Source of the DNA: a virus
Strand: one strand, 5' to 3'
Length of the DNA stretch: 28,853 nt
IMG/VR virus record: IMGVR_UViG_3300027759_000326
Coordinates: 1 to 28,853 of that record
The notes under the pieces are model-generated. The model searched no databases and was not told the origin of the DNA. It saw only the letters and a list, made by a program, of their open reading frames with translations. Below are positions 4,785 through 28,587 of this stretch, piece by piece. Both the position numbers and the translations under genes were made by a program. Within the stretch, counting starts at the first letter, position 1; every line of letters starts with the position of its first letter.

Positions 4785-4969
4785 ATGAATACGAAGTAAT
4801 CTTAAGAGAAATAGATATACAAGTAAGAAATTTAGAAGAACATTTAGGTACTGGTGTAGCCAAAGACTACTCTGAATACCAAAATATATGCGGAAAGATA
4901 TCAGGTCTACTTTCTACACGAAGATACATTCAAGACCTAAATAAACAAATGGAGAACTCAGATGAGTGA
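4781..4969 (+). CDS. Small helical protein next to portal, unknown
   Basis: This 62-aa product is translationally coupled to the portal (ATGA overlap at 4781-4784, with AAGGAAAAT as ribosome site inside the portal gene). It is strongly helical and charged, with an N-terminal segment EYEVILREIDIQVRNLEEHL and a C-terminal RRYIQDLNKQMENSDE, suggesting a short coiled coil. Its placement between portal and co-chaperonin suggests a head-assembly accessory. I do not recognise a named family. It overlaps the next gene by 8 bases. Confidence 0.7.
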   Translation: MNEYEVILREIDIQVRNLEEHLGTGVAKDYSEYQNICGKISGLLSTRRYIQDLNKQMENSDE

Positions 4970-5372
4970 AATACTAATCGGCTCAAATACCGATGATGTA
5001 ACCCAAGCAACAACCCTTCCCCAAACGGATGAGGACAAAGCAAAGCAGCTCCCAGAAGTATCAGGATATCGTATTTTATGTGCGATTCCAGAAGCAGAAA
5101 AAGAGTTTGAAAGCGGATTAATTAAGTCCGATCAAACATTACGAAATGAAGAAGTTTTATCTACAGTATTTTTTGTAGTTAAAATGGGTCCAGATTGCTA
5201 CAAGGATGAAAAAAGATTTCCTTCAGGTCCTTGGTGTAAGGTTGGTGACTTCATATTAGCCCGCCCTAATTCAGGCACACGCTTGAAGATTCATAATAGG
5301 GAATTCCGAATAATTAATGATGATAGTGTTGAGGGTATTGTAGAAGATCCCCGTGGCATTAGTCGTATTTAA
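4962..5372 (+). CDS. GroES-like (Cpn10) co-chaperonin
   Basis: Residues 35-136 match the Cpn10 pattern. They open with GYRILCAIP (as in GroES R-I-L-V). A mobile-loop-like ESGLIKSDQ follows at 50-58, where GroES has its hydrophobic GroEL-contacting tripeptide. Next come FFVVKMGPDCY, a KVGDFILA block at 93-100, SGTRLKIHNREFRII at 104-118 and a final VEGIV. The first ~33 residues are an extra polar extension. Known phage co-chaperonins such as T4 gp31 replace GroES to fold the capsid protein, and this gene's place between portal and scaffold fits that role with host GroEL. The fold is inferred from motifs only. Confidence 0.78.
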   Translation: MSEILIGSNTDDVTQATTLPQTDEDKAKQLPEVSGYRILCAIPEAEKEFESGLIKSDQTLRNEEVLSTVFFVVKMGPDCYKDEKRFPSGPWCKVGDFILARPNSGTRLKIHNREFRIINDDSVEGIVEDPRGISRI

Positions 5373-18683: not shown

Positions 18684-18841
18684 TTTATAAAATACTTACA
18701 ACAAGTCTTGATGGTCAAACTATTTATGCTCGTATAGAAGATGATGGTAAATGCTATCTAACTTGCACAGGAAACGACCAAGCCTACCTAAAATGGGTAA
18801 GCGAAGGCAACGAGCCTGAACCAGCAGAGGAAACAATATAA
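18680..18841 (+). CDS. Small tail-fibre-associated protein
   Basis: This 53-aa gene overlaps the fibre gene by ATGA and the homing endonuclease start by TAATG. It reads MIYKILTTSLDGQTIYA, then an acidic C-terminus YLKWVSEGNEPEPAEE. The W-x-x-EGN-x-PEPA ending is common in small phage proteins encoded next to fibre genes, sometimes called fibre-assembly helpers. Size, overlap and acidic tail suit a small chaperone, but the function is inferred. Confidence 0.7.
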   Translation: MIYKILTTSLDGQTIYARIEDDGKCYLTCTGNDQAYLKWVSEGNEPEPAEETI

Positions 18842-19476
18842 TGGCTAAATTTGTCAAAGGACAAATACCTTGGAACAAAGGCATGCCTGTAACTGAAGAA
18901 GTGAAGGCTAAAATCAGTGCTAAAAATACTGGTAAAAAACATACGCCTGAAACTCAAGCTAAAATAAATCTTAATCTTACTGAAGGTGGTAAAGCTACTA
19001 GGTTTGTAAAAGGACAAGTTGCATATAATAAAGGAATTAAATGTCCTCGTTATACTAAAGAAGAAATTAAAACTCATCAAAAAGAATGGCGTGAAAATAA
19101 TAAAGAAAAGATATATGCTAATACTACAAAATGGAGATTGGCAAATAAAGACAAACAAAAAGAATATACTAGCAAATCTAAGATAAAAAATTCAGCAAGA
19201 GTTAATGCTACTAATAATAAAAGACGTGCAGATAAATTAAATAGAACACCTAAATGGCTCACTAAAGATGATTTATGGTTAATAAAAGAGGCATATGAAT
19301 TAGCAGCATTAAGAAGTAAAATATTTGAATTTAAATGGCATGTAGATCATATTATTCCACTAAAAGGTAAATTAGTATCTGGTCTTCATGTACCGACTAA
19401 TTTACAAGTAATAGAAGGAACATTAAATATTATGAAGAATAATAAATTTCAAGGAGATTTATTTTGGCCTCTTTAG
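18841..19476 (+). CDS. HNH homing endonuclease with NUMOD3-like motifs
   Basis: The 211-aa free-standing endonuclease has a duplicated N-terminal FVKGQ-x3-NKG motif (4-14 and 54-65) with a NUMOD3-like DNA-binding stretch TEEVKAKISAKNTGKKHTP at 18-36. A basic linker (70-140) follows, then a C-terminal HNH site: His167-Val-Asp169-His170, Asn187, and Asn196-x2-Lys199-Asn200. Such genes spread by cutting alleles that lack them. It sits between a fibre-helper gene and the next fibre gene, is very Lys-rich and AT-rich, and its last 26 bases contain the next gene's ribosome site and start. Confidence 0.9.
   Translation: MAKFVKGQIPWNKGMPVTEEVKAKISAKNTGKKHTPETQAKINLNLTEGGKATRFVKGQVAYNKGIKCPRYTKEEIKTHQKEWRENNKEKIYANTTKWRLANKDKQKEYTSKSKIKNSARVNATNNKRRADKLNRTPKWLTKDDLWLIKEAYELAALRSKIFEFKWHVDHIIPLKGKLVSGLHVPTNLQVIEGTLNIMKNNKFQGDLFWPL
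19451..19456 (+). promoter_or_regulatory. Ribosome binding site inside the endonuclease gene
   Basis: AAGGAG ends 7 bases before the TTG at 19464. It decides that TTG start and lies within the 3' coding end of the homing endonuclease, so the downstream fibre's translation signal is now part of the mobile gene. Confidence 0.75.
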
Positions 19477-20099: not shown

Positions 20100-20257
20100 T
20101 GTTATACGATAAAATTAAATCCATATATCCACAATTAGAAGATAAAGACTTTCTTACAGTCATTACACTACAAAACGATTCAGATGGTAAAGGTGACTAC
20201 ATAGCTAAATGGGAACATCCTACACTTGCTAAACCTACAGACGAGGAACTAGCATAA
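20099..20257 (+). CDS. Small XkdW-like tail protein
   Basis: The start is the ATG at 20099 overlapping the fibre stop (TAATG); an upstream in-frame ATG at 20066 lies inside the fibre gene. The 52-aa product reads MLYDKIKSIYPQLEDKDF, a QNDSDGKGDYIAKWEHP block, and ends KPTDEELA. This resembles the phage XkdW/YorD group (short, with DDGDG-x-YIxKW), which sits next to fibre genes. It overlaps the next gene by TAATG too. A role in fibre assembly or attachment is inferred. Confidence 0.75.
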   Translation: MLYDKIKSIYPQLEDKDFLTVITLQNDSDGKGDYIAKWEHPTLAKPTDEELA

Positions 20258-21180
20258 TGGCACTCATACTTACAGGAGCATCAGGAGCAAGTACACTAGA
20301 TAGTTCTACAGGGTTAGCTATTGCTACTTGGACAACTGCTGGAAGACCTACATCTCCTATTGCTGGTCAAATGGGTTGGAATACAACTACTAAACTAATG
20401 GAAGTTTATACAGGAACTGCGTGGGTGGCCTTGGGTAACCAATCAAGTACTTATTCAGTAGAGTATTTAATTACCGCTGGTGGCGGTGGTGGTGGAACAA
20501 ATGGTGGTGGTGGCGGAGGTGGCGGATACAAAACTTCTACTACAACATTAAATGCAGGTACTACTTATACAATTACAGTAGGTTCTGGTGGTGCTGGAGC
20601 TTCTTCTGGAAATGGAACAAATGGCGGTAGTTCAGAATTATCAGGCACAGGATTAACTACTGTAACTTCATTAGGCGGTGGGGGTGGTGCAGCAGTTGAT
20701 ACATCTGGAACAGCACGAAGTGGTAATAGTGGCGGTTCAGGTGGTGGAGCTATGCAATGGAATTTTACTGGCTCTGCTGCTGGTGGTGCAGGCACTGTGG
20801 GACAAGGAAATAACGGTGGTGCAATGACTGGTTCTGGAGCAGATTTTGGTGGAGGAGGTGGTGGTGGTGCTGGAGCTGTTGGTAGTTCTGGAAGCGGTGG
20901 AGCTGGTGCTAATGGCGGAGCAGGAACTGCATCTTCTATTACTGGTTCATCCGTAACTTATGGTTCTGGAGGCGGTGGTGGCGGTAGTTCTTCTGCTGGT
21001 TCAAATGGAGCAGGTTTTTATGGTTTAGGTGGTAAAAATGGTGCTGGAAATGCAGGTATAATTATTTTATCAGTACCAACCACAAATTACTCTGGAACAA
21101 GCACAGGATCACCTACAGTTACAACATCAGGTTCTAGTACAATATTACAATTTACAGCAAGCGGTACTTACACTGCATAA
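20257..21180 (+). CDS. Glycine-rich tail adhesin, copy 1
   Basis: The 307-aa product has an N-terminal module at 23-60 (TWTTAGRPTSPIAGQMGWNT then MEVYTGTAWV). A glycine-rich body with many GGGGGG runs follows at about 72-260, and then a C-terminal block with IIILSVPTTNYSGT, GSPTVTTSG and QFTASGTYTA. Long regular Gly tracts between short loops are seen in polyglycine-II sandwich adhesins such as phage S16 gp38, and the C-terminal block is typical of phage glycine-rich domain proteins. It is paralogous to the genes at 21513 and 22632. The likely role is receptor binding at the fibre tip. Confidence 0.82.
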   Translation: MALILTGASGASTLDSSTGLAIATWTTAGRPTSPIAGQMGWNTTTKLMEVYTGTAWVALGNQSSTYSVEYLITAGGGGGGTNGGGGGGGGYKTSTTTLNAGTTYTITVGSGGAGASSGNGTNGGSSELSGTGLTTVTSLGGGGGAAVDTSGTARSGNSGGSGGGAMQWNFTGSAAGGAGTVGQGNNGGAMTGSGADFGGGGGGGAGAVGSSGSGGAGANGGAGTASSITGSSVTYGSGGGGGGSSSAGSNGAGFYGLGGKNGAGNAGIIILSVPTTNYSGTSTGSPTVTTSGSSTILQFTASGTYTA

Positions 21181-21512: not shown

Positions 21513-22622
21513 ATGACCAACGCAGTCAATCTATCAGCACTAGGTTCTAACGGAGGAACATTAGTTTCTACTTGGACTACAGGAACTCGTCCAGCTTCTC
21601 CTATTACAGGGCAAACAGGCTACAACACAACTTTAGCCGCATTAGAAATATATAATGGTTCAGGTTGGACTTCACCTAATGGTGTATGGACTACAGCAAA
21701 TAGACCTACAACACCTCCTACTGGAACAATGGGATACAATACAACTACAACTCAATTAGAAATATATAACGCTACTTATAGCAGTTGGTCAAATGCAGGA
21801 ACACCATTAATTTATACTGCTTCTTATCTTCTTGCAGCGGGCGGAGGTGCTGGAGGATATTTAGGCGGTGGAGGCGGTGCTGGAGGTTTATTAACTGGCA
21901 CTACAACTTTAACAGTTGGAACAGTTTATACAGTTACTGTTGGAGCAGGTGGAACAGCTTCTGGTTCAAGTGGTTCAAATGGTGGAGCAGGTAATAATTC
22001 TTCATTTACAGGATTAACTACAGCTCTTGGTGGGGGCGGAGGTCAATCAAGAAATGCTTCAGCAAGCTCATCACAAAATGGTGGTTCTGGTGGTGGCTCA
22101 ACAGATTGGTTTGGAGCAAACACAAACGGAACAGGAACTTCTGGTCAAGGTAACAATGGTGGTAAATCTAACAGTAGCAATAATCCTGGTGGAGGTGGTG
22201 GCACAGGGGGGGGTGGCGGTGCTTCTGCTGTAGGTGGCAGTTATAGTGGATCAGGCAATTCAGGTGCTGGAGGAGCAGGAACTGCATCATCAATAACAGG
22301 TTCATCAGTCACTTACGCAGGTGGTGGAGGTGGTGGTGATGGTTCAACTGTAAATGGATGCCCTCCAGGTGCTGGAGGTTCAGGCGGGGGTGGGGCTGGA
22401 GGAGCTTCAGGAGCTGCTGGGACTGCTGGAACTGTTAATACTGGAGGTGGAGGAGGTGGTGGTGGTAATAACCAAGCTGGTGGTGCAGGAGGTTCAGGTG
22501 TAGTAATATTATCAGTACCAACTGCAAACTATACAGGTACAACCACAGGAAGTCCTACAATTACAACTTCAGGCTCTAACACAATTATTAAATTTACAGC
22601 TTCTGGCAGCTACACAGGATAA
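21513..22622 (+). CDS. Glycine-rich tail adhesin, copy 2
   Basis: The 369-aa paralogue carries the RP-x-SP-x2-G-x2-GYNT module twice in tandem (about 19-50 and 56-90), where the other copies have it once. It then has a long Gly-rich body (about 105-325) with GGGGG runs and the shared SSITGSSVTYAGGGG block, and the C-terminal VPTANYTGT and GSPTITTSG region. The ATG lies 4 bases after the upstream stop. By analogy it forms polyglycine-II-like sheets displaying loops that contact the receptor. The differences from copies 1 and 3 are mostly in the loops between Gly tracts, as expected for host-range variation. Confidence 0.82.
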   Translation: MTNAVNLSALGSNGGTLVSTWTTGTRPASPITGQTGYNTTLAALEIYNGSGWTSPNGVWTTANRPTTPPTGTMGYNTTTTQLEIYNATYSSWSNAGTPLIYTASYLLAAGGGAGGYLGGGGGAGGLLTGTTTLTVGTVYTVTVGAGGTASGSSGSNGGAGNNSSFTGLTTALGGGGGQSRNASASSSQNGGSGGGSTDWFGANTNGTGTSGQGNNGGKSNSSNNPGGGGGTGGGGGASAVGGSYSGSGNSGAGGAGTASSITGSSVTYAGGGGGGDGSTVNGCPPGAGGSGGGGAGGASGAAGTAGTVNTGGGGGGGGNNQAGGAGGSGVVILSVPTANYTGTTTGSPTITTSGSNTIIKFTASGSYTG

Positions 22623-22631
22623 GGATAAATC

Positions 22632-23693
22632 ATGGCATTAACACAAGTCCCACCAGCGCTTTTAACTGCGACTACAGGAACAGGAACAACTGTTGTACTA
22701 GGTACATCGCCTACGATTACTACTCCTACTATTTCTGGACAATTAAATCTTCCTACATGGACTACAGGGACAAGACCTGCAAGTCCAGTAACAGGAACTC
22801 AAGGCTACAATACTACTACAACACAAATAGAAGTTTACAATGCAACATATGGCATTTGGTCTAATGCTGGAACATCACCAATCTATACTGCTTCTTATTT
22901 GATTATTGCTGGTGGCGGTTCTGGAGGAAATGCTCCTACTGGTTTTTGGGAGGTTGGCGGTGGTGGCGGAGCTGGAGGATTATTAACTGGAACAACAACT
23001 TTAACTGTAGGCACAGTATATACAACAACTGTCGGTGCTGGTGGGTCAGGCACTTCAAGCAATTCTCGTGGTAGTAGTGGTTCAAACTCTACTGGATTTG
23101 GATTAACTTCAATTGGCGGTGGTGGCGGTGGCGGTGGTAATACTGCGGGAAACAGAGCAGCATTATCAGGGGGATCAGGTGGCGGAGGTTCAGGGTATGA
23201 TTTCAGGGATGGAGCTGCTGGAACATCAGGTCAAGGTTTTGCTGGAGGAAGTGGTTATGCAGATGGTGGCGGTGGAAATGCTGGTGGCGGAGGTGGCGGT
23301 GGAGCTGGCGCTGTAGGCGGCAATGCTACAAGTGCAAATGGTGCTACTGGAGGTAATGGATCATCTAGTTCTATCACAGGTTCTTCAGTAACACGTGCTG
23401 GTGGAGGTGGTGGTGCTGGTGGATCTTCATCAGGATCAGGAGGTGCTGGAGGTTCAGGCGGAGGCGGAGCTGGTGCGGCAGGTGGAACAGCTACTTCTGG
23501 TACAGCAAATACTGGTGGTGGTGGCGGAGGAAACTCAAGATCAGGAACTAGCGGTAGCGGTGGTTCAGGCGTGGTTATTATTTCAGTACCAACAATTAAC
23601 TATACAGGAACTACAACAGGCTCACCAACAATAACAACTTCAGGTTCAAGTACAATATTACAATTTAACGCTTCAGGAAGCTACACAGCATAA
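22632..23693 (+). CDS. Glycine-rich tail adhesin, copy 3
   Basis: The 353-aa paralogue has an N-terminal fibre-type start (LTATTGTGTTVVLGTSPTI), one RPASPVTGTQGYNT module at about 47-60, a Gly-rich body from about 95 to 315 with the SSITGSSVTRAGGGG block, and the C-terminal VPTINYTGT and GSPTITTSG region. AAGGA precedes the ATG. The stop overlaps the next start by TAATG. Its similarity to copy 2 extends from the GYNT module into the YTASYLI segment, suggesting copies 2 and 3 are the most recent pair. Confidence 0.82.
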   Translation: MALTQVPPALLTATTGTGTTVVLGTSPTITTPTISGQLNLPTWTTGTRPASPVTGTQGYNTTTTQIEVYNATYGIWSNAGTSPIYTASYLIIAGGGSGGNAPTGFWEVGGGGGAGGLLTGTTTLTVGTVYTTTVGAGGSGTSSNSRGSSGSNSTGFGLTSIGGGGGGGGNTAGNRAALSGGSGGGGSGYDFRDGAAGTSGQGFAGGSGYADGGGGNAGGGGGGGAGAVGGNATSANGATGGNGSSSSITGSSVTRAGGGGGAGGSSSGSGGAGGSGGGGAGAAGGTATSGTANTGGGGGGNSRSGTSGSGGSGVVIISVPTINYTGTTTGSPTITTSGSSTILQFNASGSYTA

Positions 23694-24592
23694 TGTTTGG
23701 ATACGCTGCCTTTGCTCAACCTACATTTGCTGGACTAGGTGGCAATTCGTTTGTACTTTCTTTAACTGAAGATATTGTTATGGCTGACGCAAGTAGCCAA
23801 GTCTTTGTATTTAATGAAGCCGTCTTTGAAAATGTAGTGATGGATGATATTGACGCTACAACAGGTGATTTCTTTGGGCTTATTAATGAATTTGTAGCGA
23901 TGAATGATGTTAATACTGTTACAGCTCAGTTTTCATCAAGCATTACAGAAGATTCAGTTTTAAACGATACACCAGCTATAGCAGCTCAGTTTGCAGTAAG
24001 TAAGACAGAAGACGCAGTTATGGACGATGTAAGAGATGTTTATTTTGCAGCGTTACAAGAGCGTGTTGAACCATTTACGATGGATGATATAAGAAGTATA
24101 GCAGCTCAGTTTATAGCGTCACAAACAGAAAATGTAGACCTTGCTGATACACAAAGTATTACGGCTCAGTTTGCACAAAGTATTGTAGAAGACATGACGA
24201 TGGCAGATGCTTATGTAGCTATAACTAACTTTTTAGTTTCAAGAAATGAAGACATTACAATGGCAGATATTTTAACCATTGTCCAAGGGTTCTTCTTTAC
24301 AATTACAGAGAATCTAAACGCTGCTGATGCAAATACAGCTATTACCAACTTTAATGTATCTTTAACAGAGAACTCTAACTTAGAGGATACGACTACAGTT
24401 ACAGCTGCATTCCAAGCTTCTATTGTTGAAACATTTGCACTATTAGATTCCCAATTCCCTCGTGGATGGTTTAAAATAAACGATGACCAATCTGTTACTT
24501 GGGCAGCGATAAACAATGATAATTCAGTATCTTGGACTGAAATTAATAACAATGTACCTACTTCATGGACAGATATAAATAATACTCAATAA
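23693..24592 (+). CDS. Repeat protein: twelve 20-residue Glu/Asp repeats plus four 11-residue Trp repeats
   Basis: The 299-aa product is almost entirely repetitive. From residue 21 to 252 the unit is exactly 20 residues with no indel: Glu at 26, 46, and so on to 246, Asp at 32, 52, and so on to 252, and Phe at the end of nearly all units (40, 60, 80, 100, 140 and so on). The C-terminus has Trp at 259, 270, 281 and 292, each followed by an IN(N/D) at +3. Such perfect phasing suggests a beta-solenoid or stacked fibre shaft with acidic ladders. It lies among fibre genes (start overlaps the upstream stop), so it is probably a fibre shaft. No enzymatic motif. Confidence 0.85.
   Translation: MFGYAAFAQPTFAGLGGNSFVLSLTEDIVMADASSQVFVFNEAVFENVVMDDIDATTGDFFGLINEFVAMNDVNTVTAQFSSSITEDSVLNDTPAIAAQFAVSKTEDAVMDDVRDVYFAALQERVEPFTMDDIRSIAAQFIASQTENVDLADTQSITAQFAQSIVEDMTMADAYVAITNFLVSRNEDITMADILTIVQGFFFTITENLNAADANTAITNFNVSLTENSNLEDTTTVTAAFQASIVETFALLDSQFPRGWFKINDDQSVTWAAINNDNSVSWTEINNNVPTSWTDINNTQ
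23768..24448 (+). repeat. 12 x 20-residue (60-nt) coding repeat
   Basis: The DNA equivalent of residues 26-252 of the repeat protein. The protein period is exact (20 residues, invariant Glu and Asp six residues apart). The nucleotide repeats have diverged, so the phasing is maintained at protein level rather than by recent duplication. GCTCAGTTT recurs in several units. Confidence 0.85.
24467..24589 (+). repeat. 4 x 11-residue Trp-Ile-Asn coding repeat
   Basis: Residues 259-299: W-x2-I-N-[ND] four times at an exact spacing of 11 residues. The last copy is truncated at the C-terminus. Confidence 0.8.
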
Positions 24593-24601
24593 GGACACAT
24601 T

Positions 24602-25987
24602 ATGGCATCAACCTATTCAACCTCGTTAAAACTCACTCTCATTGGAGATGGTGAACAGGCTGGTACCTGGGGATCAACTACCAATAATAATTTAAACTTA
24701 GTAGAACAAGCTATTACAGGTGTAGACGGTATTGATCTTACAGGCCTTACGACTTATACACTTTCTAACTATAACGGCACCACAGATGAAGCTAGAAATG
24801 CCGTATTATTATTTAAAGGAACTCCATCAGCTACTGTAACTATTACTGCACCATTACAAAATAAATTTTATATTGTAAAAAATGCTACAGCCCAAACAAT
24901 TACAATGTCAGCTTCTGGAGGATCTATATCTTTATCAATTCCAGCTGGTGTAACAGCTCAAGTATATTGTGATTCAACAAATGAATCTGGTACAGGTACT
25001 GGATTTTATTCAGCACAAACAGGATCTGCTGGTAACTTTACAGTTAATGGTAATTTATCTGTTACTGGAGCTCAAGTTAATACAGGAAACTTTTTAGCTG
25101 CTGGTGTTTTAGGTGCCTATACTGCAGCATCATTTACAGGCGGTATTAGTAATGGATCTGGTGCAGCAGGTACAGTTCTTAATATATCTGCAGTAGCAAG
25201 TGGCACTATATTTATAGGTCAAAGAGTTACTGGTTCTGGTGTAACATCTGGAACGCTTATTACTGGATTTGGCACAGGGTCTGGTGGTGCTGGAACTTAT
25301 ACAGTCAATACATCTCAACTTGTTAGTGCTAGCACATCATTAACTGGTGCAGCTAGTGCGATTGCAACAACCCCAGCATCTGGTGACAATTCAGTTAATA
25401 TTGCTACAACAGCATTTGTACAATCATCTGTAGGCACTTTAGGCACTATGGCTTCTCAAAACGCAAGCTCAGTTGCTATTACTGGTGGTGCAATTAATGG
25501 AACAACAATAGGCGCAACTACTGCATCAACGGGTGCTTTTACAACATTATCTGCTAATTCAACAACAGCTATTACAGGCGCTTTATCTATTAGTAATTTA
25601 ATTACTGCTGGCGAAAAAACAACTGTATCTGCCACAGCAGCTTCTAGCACAGTTCAATTTGATATTTTAACTCAAGGTGTTTTATATTATACAACTAATG
25701 CATCAGGTAACTGGACACTCAATGTAAGAGGTAATAGCAGTACTACACTAGACAGTGTTATGGCTGTAGGAGAAACAAGAACTATTACATTCTTAGCTAC
25801 ACAAGGCAGTACGGCTTATTATCAATCAGCGCTTACTATAGATGGTACTTCAGTAACACCTAAATGGCAAAATGGAATAGCACCATCTTCAGGAAATGCA
25901 AGTGGAATTGATATTTATGTTCTTAGTATCGTTAAAACTGCATCTGCTACATTTACAGTTTTAGAATCACAAACTAAATTTTCATAA
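24602..25987 (+). CDS. Tail fibre with GEQAGTWG N-terminal domain
   Basis: The 461-aa fibre begins with the well-known phage block [20 protein letters not shown] at 8-27, followed by [12 protein letters not shown] beta region (about 50-130) then carries [16 protein letters not shown] shaft has an [19 protein letters not shown] module near 185 and [19 protein letters not shown] at about 290-308. The C-terminal domain has [37 protein letters not shown] and a final [10 protein letters not shown]. These N- and C-terminal blocks recur together in environmental phage fibres. AAGGA precedes the ATG. Receptor is unknown. Confidence 0.85.
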
Positions 25988-27125: not shown

Positions 27126-27593
27126 ATGAAAATATTAATTGGAATTTTATTAACACTTTGCTTACTTTGGTGTGTGCACAATGCTCATGCTGAAACAACA
27201 ATTATTCAAAACAAAGGTATGCCAGTACAGAGTGCTATGGCACCTAGTATGTCTGCATTTTCACAAGATGTTTGTGCAGTTCCTATATCAGGTGCGGGTA
27301 ACTTTGGTGTAGTGTCGTTATCAGGCGGTACTGTGGTGCTAGATCAGAACTGCGTTAAGATTAAGTTAGCAAAAACATTAAATGATTTAGGACTTAAAGT
27401 AGCTGCCGTATCAGTGCTATGCCAAGACCCAACAGTTTGGGATGCAATGGAAATGTCAGGTTCACCATGTCCTATGGGTGGTGCTGTAGGTCAAGCCGCT
27501 AAGAAAGCTTGGTTCACTAAGTATCCTGAAAGGTTTAAAAAATTATATGGTGAGGATTACAACATTCCTTCTTTGCCTCCTACTAGAGAGTAA
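27126..27593 (+). CDS. Secreted protein with Sec signal peptide, unknown
   Basis: The start is the ATG at 27126, 5 bases after AAGGA; the longer in-frame ORF from 27099 lacks such a site. The 155-aa product has a clear signal peptide (MKILIGILLTLCLLWCVHNA, cleavage expected after AHA at residue 22). The mature part has Cys near 46, 67, 91 and 106, with VCAVPISGAGNFGVVSLSGG and VLCQDPTVWDAMEMSGSPC. It probably acts in the periplasm of a Gram-negative host. The last 47 bases overlap the next gene. Confidence 0.78.
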   Translation: MKILIGILLTLCLLWCVHNAHAETTIIQNKGMPVQSAMAPSMSAFSQDVCAVPISGAGNFGVVSLSGGTVVLDQNCVKIKLAKTLNDLGLKVAAVSVLCQDPTVWDAMEMSGSPCPMGGAVGQAAKKAWFTKYPERFKKLYGEDYNIPSLPPTRE

Positions 27594-28587
27594 TGCGTAT
27601 GCTTGGTATTGTAACTACGTTCCGCAACAAGGTACAGGCTATGTTACAAACCTTGCCTGTTATGGTATTGACAATCAAAGCGCATTGTCTCAAGCTTGGT
27701 GCCCTACGCACCCTAATGATCCCATATGTGGATTTTATTACCAACCAGTTTGCCAAAATCAAACAGAGTATCAGTCACTTGGTTGCTTACCTCATTTCTC
27801 AGGTGCTATTAATCAAAGTAGGTCTTATGCTTGTACTTCACAAAGTTGGACAGCTTGGACAACAACTTCTGATAACTGTACGCCAGATCCTCCAACGTGC
27901 ATACAAAGCACTGAAACGAGGCAACTAACATGCCAAGCTGGTTACGAAGGATTATTACAGGAGCAAAGGAATTCAATTTGCTCGGATCCGTATGGTTCTC
28001 CAACTTGGACAGCTTGGTTGGAAACGTCCAATACTTGCAAGATGACGGCAACGAACATAAACAATCCGACATCGCCAATCAGTCCGATCAGTCCAACGAA
28101 TCCAAACAGTGTGATAAATCAACAAGTCACAACTGCGCCAGCACCCCAAATAGAACCTGTAACTGTTCAGGATCTGAGTGCATTACCAACGGGGAATCTG
28201 GATACTACTTTGGCAGCAACACCAGCAAAAAGCGAGGTAAGTGGAACGACATCTGCACCAAGCCCCGCAAGTACTACGATGACATCGGGTACAGATAAAA
28301 AAGATACACCTAAAGGAGTTGATATTCCTAAAGGTAAAGATATAGTACCAGGCTTTGGCATAGTAATGTCAATGCAATTTTTAAATGCTGGTTACAATAT
28401 GCAACAAGAACAAATGAAAGAATATATTAACTTAATACAGGAAGAAGATTATGGCAGACAACAAAACATACTCCTTGAATTTATCAGCGCAAATGATACT
28501 GGGGATCGCCTGTTCAGTGCTAGTGCCATTAGGTGGCGCAGTATACTACGGGATAACCCTCTTCAACGATTTGACAGGGACGATTGA
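27547..28587 (+). CDS. Secreted protein with two TSP1-like Cys/Trp repeats
   Basis: The 346-aa product has a signal peptide (residues 1-19, hydrophobic core TTFLLCLLLE, cleavage after AYA). Residues 69-111 and 118-164 are two repeats with matching Cys spacing (C-x10-C-x15-C) and WTAW seven residues before the last Cys, reminiscent of thrombospondin type-1. A Pro/Ser/Thr-rich linker follows (170-245). The C-terminal part, about 265-346, begins DIVPGFGIVMSMQFL. The first 47 bases overlap the upstream gene and the last 137 overlap the next, both in other frames. Adhesin, host-surface or lysis role are all possible. Confidence 0.72.
   Translation: MVRITTFLLCLLLESNAYAWYCNYVPQQGTGYVTNLACYGIDNQSALSQAWCPTHPNDPICGFYYQPVCQNQTEYQSLGCLPHFSGAINQSRSYACTSQSWTAWTTTSDNCTPDPPTCIQSTETRQLTCQAGYEGLLQEQRNSICSDPYGSPTWTAWLETSNTCKMTATNINNPTSPISPISPTNPNSVINQQVTTAPAPQIEPVTVQDLSALPTGNLDTTLAATPAKSEVSGTTSAPSPASTTMTSGTDKKDTPKGVDIPKGKDIVPGFGIVMSMQFLNAGYNMQQEQMKEYINLIQEEDYGRQQNILLEFISANDTGDRLFSASAIRWRSILRDNPLQRFDRDD

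What the first reader, a model, noticed from the sequence alone, without database searches (positions are those of the whole stretch)
23768..24448. Perfectly phased 20-residue repeat with invariant Glu and Asp ladders
Over 12 units, Glu recurs at residues 26, 46, and so on to 246 and Asp at 32, 52, and so on to 252, with no insertion or deletion, while other positions vary. Such exact spacing implies each unit is one turn or layer of a regular fold. Stacked acidic side chains would form ladders that could bind metal ions. I know no named fold for this 20-residue pattern in phage fibres.
Basis: partly seen in the sequence, partly recalled or inferred. Interest (0 to 1): 0.7.

Follow-up and report, generated by a model that had tools for sequence, protein, structure and literature searches.

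The report
Phage rod-like repeat protein, unusually regular
A short-tailed aquatic phage makes a probable tail-appendage protein built from twelve 20-amino-acid units, each with a near-invariant glutamate and aspartate; the same end piece occurs in related phages in front of different repeats, which suggests a rod that is exchanged between fixed ends.

Summary
ORF 23693-24592 (299 aa) carries 12 gap-free 20-residue units with Glu (26...246) and Asp (32...252) in 12/12, plus Phe in 11/12 and Met/Leu in 11/12. It is real and under selection: 388 relatives occur in uncultured viral contigs, E is kept at 86-100% and D at 68-100% per column, spacing is 20 in 775 of 811 intervals, and ladder codons differ mostly synonymously.

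No Pfam, PDB, GTDB-genome or cultured-phage relative of the repeat was found. The protein has three modules: an 18-residue N-terminal cap, the array, and a C-terminal 11-residue Trp repeat. It sits upstream of a tail-fibre-type gene in all 65 loci tested. In cultured relatives the same slot and cap carry other repeats: a 22-residue VTG repeat (HTVC023P gp68) and an acid-poor 20-residue repeat (ctXG6705, Venkman gp51). Profile comparison aligns only the caps.

Best reading: a virion rod with swappable repeat chemistry; the acids are structural, possibly metal-binding. Fold and metal binding are not shown. Two AlphaFold2 monomer jobs failed (pLDDT 41, 32), which neither supports nor refutes an obligate multimer.

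The parts
23693..24592 (+). ORF of the finding, 299 aa; net charge -37; its ATG overlaps the upstream stop by one base (TAATG)
23693..23746 (+). N-terminal cap, residues 1-18 (MFGYAAFAQPTFAGLGGN), shared with proteins that carry different repeats
23750..24469 (+). 12 x 20-residue repeat array, residues 20-259; consensus F-x-x-S-[IL]-T-E-N-x-x-[LM]-A-D-x-x-[ST]-[IV]-x-A-x
23768..24448 (+). span of the Glu (26...246) and Asp (32...252) ladders as reported
24467..24589 (+). C-terminal module with Trp at residues 259, 270, 281, 292 (period 11, W-x-x-I-[ND]); copy number varies in relatives
22632..23693 (+). upstream glycine-rich ORF (Pfam Gly_rich_2 above cut-off), overlapping by one base; in L031 a Gly-rich stretch is fused directly to the same repeat
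24602..25987 (+). downstream tail-fibre-type ORF ('GTWG' N-terminus), downstream of the repeat gene in 65 of 65 eligible family loci

Best explanation
The ORF encodes a rod-like component of the phage's tail or fibre apparatus, with three modules. The 18-residue cap docks it to a conserved virion or fibre partner (inferred). Twelve 20-residue units make a beta-rich rod of fixed length (inferred). The Trp-repeat end closes the rod, or contacts the next fibre protein (encoded directly downstream) or the host surface (inferred). Within a unit, residues 23-32 alternate strictly, with hydrophobic residues at 24, 28 and 30 and with Glu26 and Asp32 on the same parity. The acids would therefore lie on the core-facing side, where they would hold neighbouring layers or chains together by hydrogen bonds or bound metal; this is a structural rather than catalytic role. 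Shown: sequence, conservation, selection, synteny and cap sharing. Inferred: virion location, beta fold, oligomer, ladder stacking, metal.
For: Tail-gene neighbourhood: Gly-rich proteins upstream and a fibre-type protein downstream whose relatives are annotated tail fibre, tail spike or tail protein. The downstream gene follows the repeat gene in 65/65 loci of this family (L028 and L038 counted), 26/26 of the VTG type and 11/11 of the acid-poor type, mostly within 120 bp, in a few up to 1.7 kb. Fixed length: 59 of 66 relatives are 299-300 aa, and units of the same index are more alike across diverged relatives than units of different index (0.42 against 0.30). Ladder codons show 107 synonymous against 20 nonsynonymous differences; other repeat codons 668 against 1514. 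Hydrophobic fraction at 24/28/30 is 77-87%, at odd positions 23-31 6-17%. Net charge is -37 against +1 to -8 for neighbouring fibre-like ORFs. Cap profile: the top 63 of 204,672 scored positions are all the caps of repeat proteins; hhalign gives cap-only matches, E 1.6e-7 and 1.3e-7.
Against: No proteomic or imaging evidence that the protein is in virions. AlphaFold2 gave no fold, and the weak secondary structure it drew was helical. Mean helix and strand propensities of the units are about equal (1.05 and 1.03). No metal-site precedent was found.
Confidence: 0.58

Rival explanations
1. A monomeric beta-solenoid of the pentapeptide-repeat type (20 residues = 4 pentapeptides per coil) with acidic ladders on its surface.
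For: Period 20 equals one quadrilateral coil; F at 20 and L/M at 30 are 10 apart; three distant relatives match Pentapeptide_4 weakly (best E 4e-6, 27 bits, below the cut-off of 38).
Against: The window protein has no Pfam match at E <= 0.1; lag-5 identity is 0.10 against 0.08 for shuffles while lag-20 is 0.28-0.30; both monomer predictions failed, whereas in general knowledge monomeric solenoids usually predict well.
Confidence: 0.12
2. A secreted, curli-like (CsgA-type) repeat protein acting on the host surface rather than in the virion.
For: HTVC023P-type pelagiphages, related to this phage by terminase, are reported to carry curli secretion genes including CsgA/B repeats (PMC9599517); repeats of about 20-22 residues are in the curli size range.
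Against: No curlin Pfam match; no CsgG or CsgF seen in the window; the gene sits in the tail-fibre block in every repeat type tested; the curli gene cluster described in the paper has its own order.
Confidence: 0.07
3. A flexible acidic linker or spacer without regular structure, its period reflecting only duplication.
For: Low AlphaFold2 confidence; small polar composition.
Against: Units are highly diverged yet keep E, D, F, L/M and the 20-residue phase; ladder codons are under purifying selection; hydrophobic alternation.
Confidence: 0.13
4. A short alpha-helix plus loop per unit (the 20, 24, 28 stripe) stacking as a helical repeat.
For: The second AlphaFold2 model drew a helix in most units at pLDDT about 32; helix propensity is not lower than strand propensity.
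Against: Very low confidence; high Thr/Ser/Asn/Val/Ile content; Pro at 27 and 34 and Gly at 38 in 12-14% of units.
Confidence: 0.1

Closest known systems
Pelagibacter phage HTVC023P gp68 (QGZ17697.1, hypothetical protein)
   Same: Same slot upstream of a tail gene; homologous cap (LLGITAISQSPIASLGG); Trp-containing C-terminus; tandem repeats; terminases of the two phages 55% identical
   Different: Repeat is 22 residues with a VTG-x-Q consensus and no E/D ladder; hhalign does not align the repeats
Podovirus ctXG6705 UOF77505.1 and Methylophilales phage Venkman gp51 (QLF88126.1)
   Same: Cap MFGICSFSQAPFSSLAG / MYGLSAFSQSPYSALG; 20-residue period; 11-residue Trp C-terminus; in a tail gene block
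   Different: Repeat is Ala/Ser/Thr-rich (ASI-x-A-x-A-x-V) without acidic ladders; the annotated names ('serine-rich adhesin', 'HERC6') are not informative
Pentapeptide-repeat proteins (Pfam PF13599, PF00805)
   Same: 20 residues per coil in principle
   Different: No significant match for the window protein and no 5-residue periodicity
Trimeric phage and virus fibre shafts (triple beta-helix, e.g. T4 gp5; triple beta-spiral, e.g. adenovirus fibre)
   Same: Works-like analogy only: long, regular, beta-rich repeats in a fibre
   Different: Known repeats are of about 8 and 15 residues (own knowledge); no sequence match in PDB

Membership tests
Pentapeptide-repeat proteins | Match to pentapeptide Pfam models above cut-off | tested here: not met
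   none for the window protein; best relative 27 bits against cut-off 38
Pentapeptide-repeat proteins | Five-residue periodicity | tested here: not met
   lag 5 = 0.10, shuffle mean 0.08, lag 20 = 0.28-0.30
Curlin (CsgA) repeats | Match to a curlin repeat model | tested here: not met
   no Pfam match at E <= 0.1; none listed among relatives
Capped tail-slot repeat proteins (group described here) | Cap homologous to MFG-x-x-AFAQ-x-PFA-x-L-GG | tested here: met
Capped tail-slot repeat proteins (group described here) | Located upstream of a tail-fibre-type gene | tested here: met
   all eligible loci of three repeat types, mostly adjacent; in a few the hit starts up to 1.7 kb downstream
Trimeric fibre shafts | Homotrimer with repeats wound round a common axis | not testable with these tools
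   only monomer prediction offered; both jobs below pLDDT 42
Metal-binding acidic ladder | Stacked carboxylates coordinating metal ions | not testable with these tools
   no confident model

The most novel reading that the evidence does not exclude
A new multimeric fibre fold in which Glu and Asp on the core-facing side of each 20-residue layer stack into ladders that hold a column of metal ions, and which is one of at least three unrelated repeat rods exchanged between the same cap and the same kind of Trp-repeat end in one gene slot of aquatic phages.
Probability: 0.15. Interest if true: 0.7.

Novelty: new variant of a known kind. Interest (0 to 1): 0.45.

Why it matters
Long phage fibres are usually built on a few known repeat folds. 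This repeat is present in hundreds of uncultured aquatic phages, matches no described family at a curated cut-off, and keeps two acidic positions per unit almost invariant. Finding the same end cap on proteins with chemically different repeats, in the same gene slot, gives a testable case of rod exchange between fixed ends. It also gives cultured handles (HTVC023P gp68, Venkman gp51) on a family otherwise known only from metagenomes.

Tried and rejected
AlphaFold2 on the window protein with 66 aligned sequences (pLDDT 41) and on the more regular array of L038 (pLDDT 32): no usable model, so no fold search was run. PDB profile search: only chance-level hits (ATP synthase delta, E 0.8). PHROGs: weak matches only (phrog_1352, E 0.009; phrog_28766 'tail fiber' in 4 of 66 members). 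tblastn of three family members against cultured phages: nothing at E 0.01; a fourth gave one chance-level hit (E 3) in DSL-LC04 over the Trp end. Profile-based scan of bacterial and archaeal genomes: no confirmed relative. Literature searches for this repeat or for acidic ladders in phage fibres: nothing relevant. Weak Pfam hits such as RAD24, MukB hinge and OSCP in single relatives were rejected as chance. The weak PDB leads for the sister repeats (baseplate spike 9f4a, E 0.085; adhesin 3ljy, E 0.025) are not significant.

Full report
What is there. The ORF at 23693-24592 (+) encodes 299 aa. Identity at lag 20 is 0.30 against 0.079 +/- 0.018 after shuffling, and no shuffle in 100,000 had a column above 9/12 for the residue types tested. 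The units also share Phe (11/12) and Met/Leu (11/12). A second phased repeat ends the protein: Trp 259, 270, 281 and 292, period 11.

It is a family under selection. A single-sequence scan of viral contigs gave 41 loci; a profile scan found 388 relatives, of which the best 80 were kept. In an alignment of 66, Glu is conserved at 86-100% per unit column and Asp at 68-100%. Among 80 distinct ORFs, 775 of 811 unit intervals are exactly 20. 59 of 66 aligned members are 299-300 aa. Distant or fused members have from about 5 to 16 units. Units of the same index in diverged relatives are more alike (0.42) than units of different index (0.30), so the 12-unit array is inherited as a whole. Against 16 relatives, ladder codons show 107 synonymous and 20 nonsynonymous differences, other repeat codons 668 and 1514. 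This count is rough because a few relatives may have compensating indels.

Three modules. The protein has an N-terminal cap (MFG-x-x-AFAQ-x-PFA-x-L-GG), the array, and the Trp end. Net charge is -37, against +1 to -8 for the neighbouring fibre-like ORFs. In L028, L031 and L038 the repeat is the C-terminal part of 1282-1579 aa proteins, and in L031 a Gly-rich stretch precedes it. In the window, a Gly-rich ORF (Pfam Gly_rich_2) precedes the repeat ORF with a one-base overlap. This supports joint function of the two parts.

Neighbourhood and phage. The window holds terminase, portal, GroES, capsid and SU10-type adaptor genes. The terminase is 55-59% identical to HTVC023P-type pelagiphages and DSL-LC04 and 48% to Pag-Yong1, so this is probably a short-tailed phage of that wider group. 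The gene just downstream of the repeat ORF is a fibre-type protein whose relatives are annotated tail fibre, tail spike or tail protein. It lies downstream of the repeat gene in 63 of 65 eligible loci by script. The two script misses, L028 and L038, are adjacent too; their match coordinates overran the ORF end.

Same slot, different rods. In cultured relatives the gene at this slot has a homologous cap but other repeats. HTVC023P gp68 was found through the slot; it has 68 uncultured relatives, and the 28 examined share a 22-residue VTG repeat. Podovirus ctXG6705, Venkman gp51 and relatives have a 20-residue Ala/Ser/Thr repeat without acidic ladders and with a clear 11-residue Trp end. Scoring 204,672 positions of those loci with the cap profile of the E/D family puts the caps of these repeat proteins in the top 63 places, with no other site among them. 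A 23-residue cap consensus searched against 50,697 phage records returns only these three proteins, at E 0.4-4: individually weak, but the same three that synteny or whole-protein similarity had already named. The repeats are therefore either unrelated or diverged beyond detection, while the cap is shared. Whether this happened by exchange or by rapid divergence is not settled.

How it may work. In units, positions 24, 28 and 30 are large hydrophobics in 77-87%, positions 23, 25, 27, 29 and 31 in 6-17%. If residues 23-32 form a strand, Glu26 and Asp32 lie on the hydrophobic side. With few Lys or Arg in the units, buried acids would need hydrogen bonds, protonation or metal. This is inference. 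The strand assignment itself is uncertain, since mean propensities for helix and strand are about equal.

Structure. AlphaFold2 gave pLDDT 41 for this protein and 32 for L038. This does not support a stacked ladder, and makes a simple monomeric solenoid less likely. It does not exclude a trimer, which could not be run.

Verdict. The most useful new point is the shared cap in front of different repeats in one slot.

Noticed in passing
window 20257-21180, 21513-22622, 22632-23693: Three glycine-rich ORFs with similar C-termini match PHROG 2295 (and Gly_rich_2); they look like paralogous fibre-tip proteins, and which gene precedes the repeat gene varies in relatives.
   Followed up: partly
window 18841-19476: Endonuclease VII / homing-endonuclease-like ORF inside the tail gene block.
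   Followed up: no
window 4962-5372: GroES-like co-chaperonin gene between portal and capsid genes.
   Followed up: no
window 27547-28587 and 27593-28298: A 346-aa ORF overlaps two ORFs in other frames; all are similar in relatives by tblastn, so either one frame is passively conserved or genes overlap.
   Followed up: no
L031 1460-1882: A 140-aa second copy with the cap, a few repeat units and a short Trp end on the same contig as the 1282-aa fused repeat protein.
   Followed up: partly
literature, HTVC023P-type phages: Related pelagiphages are reported to carry curli secretion genes (PMC9599517); none was seen in this window.
   Followed up: no
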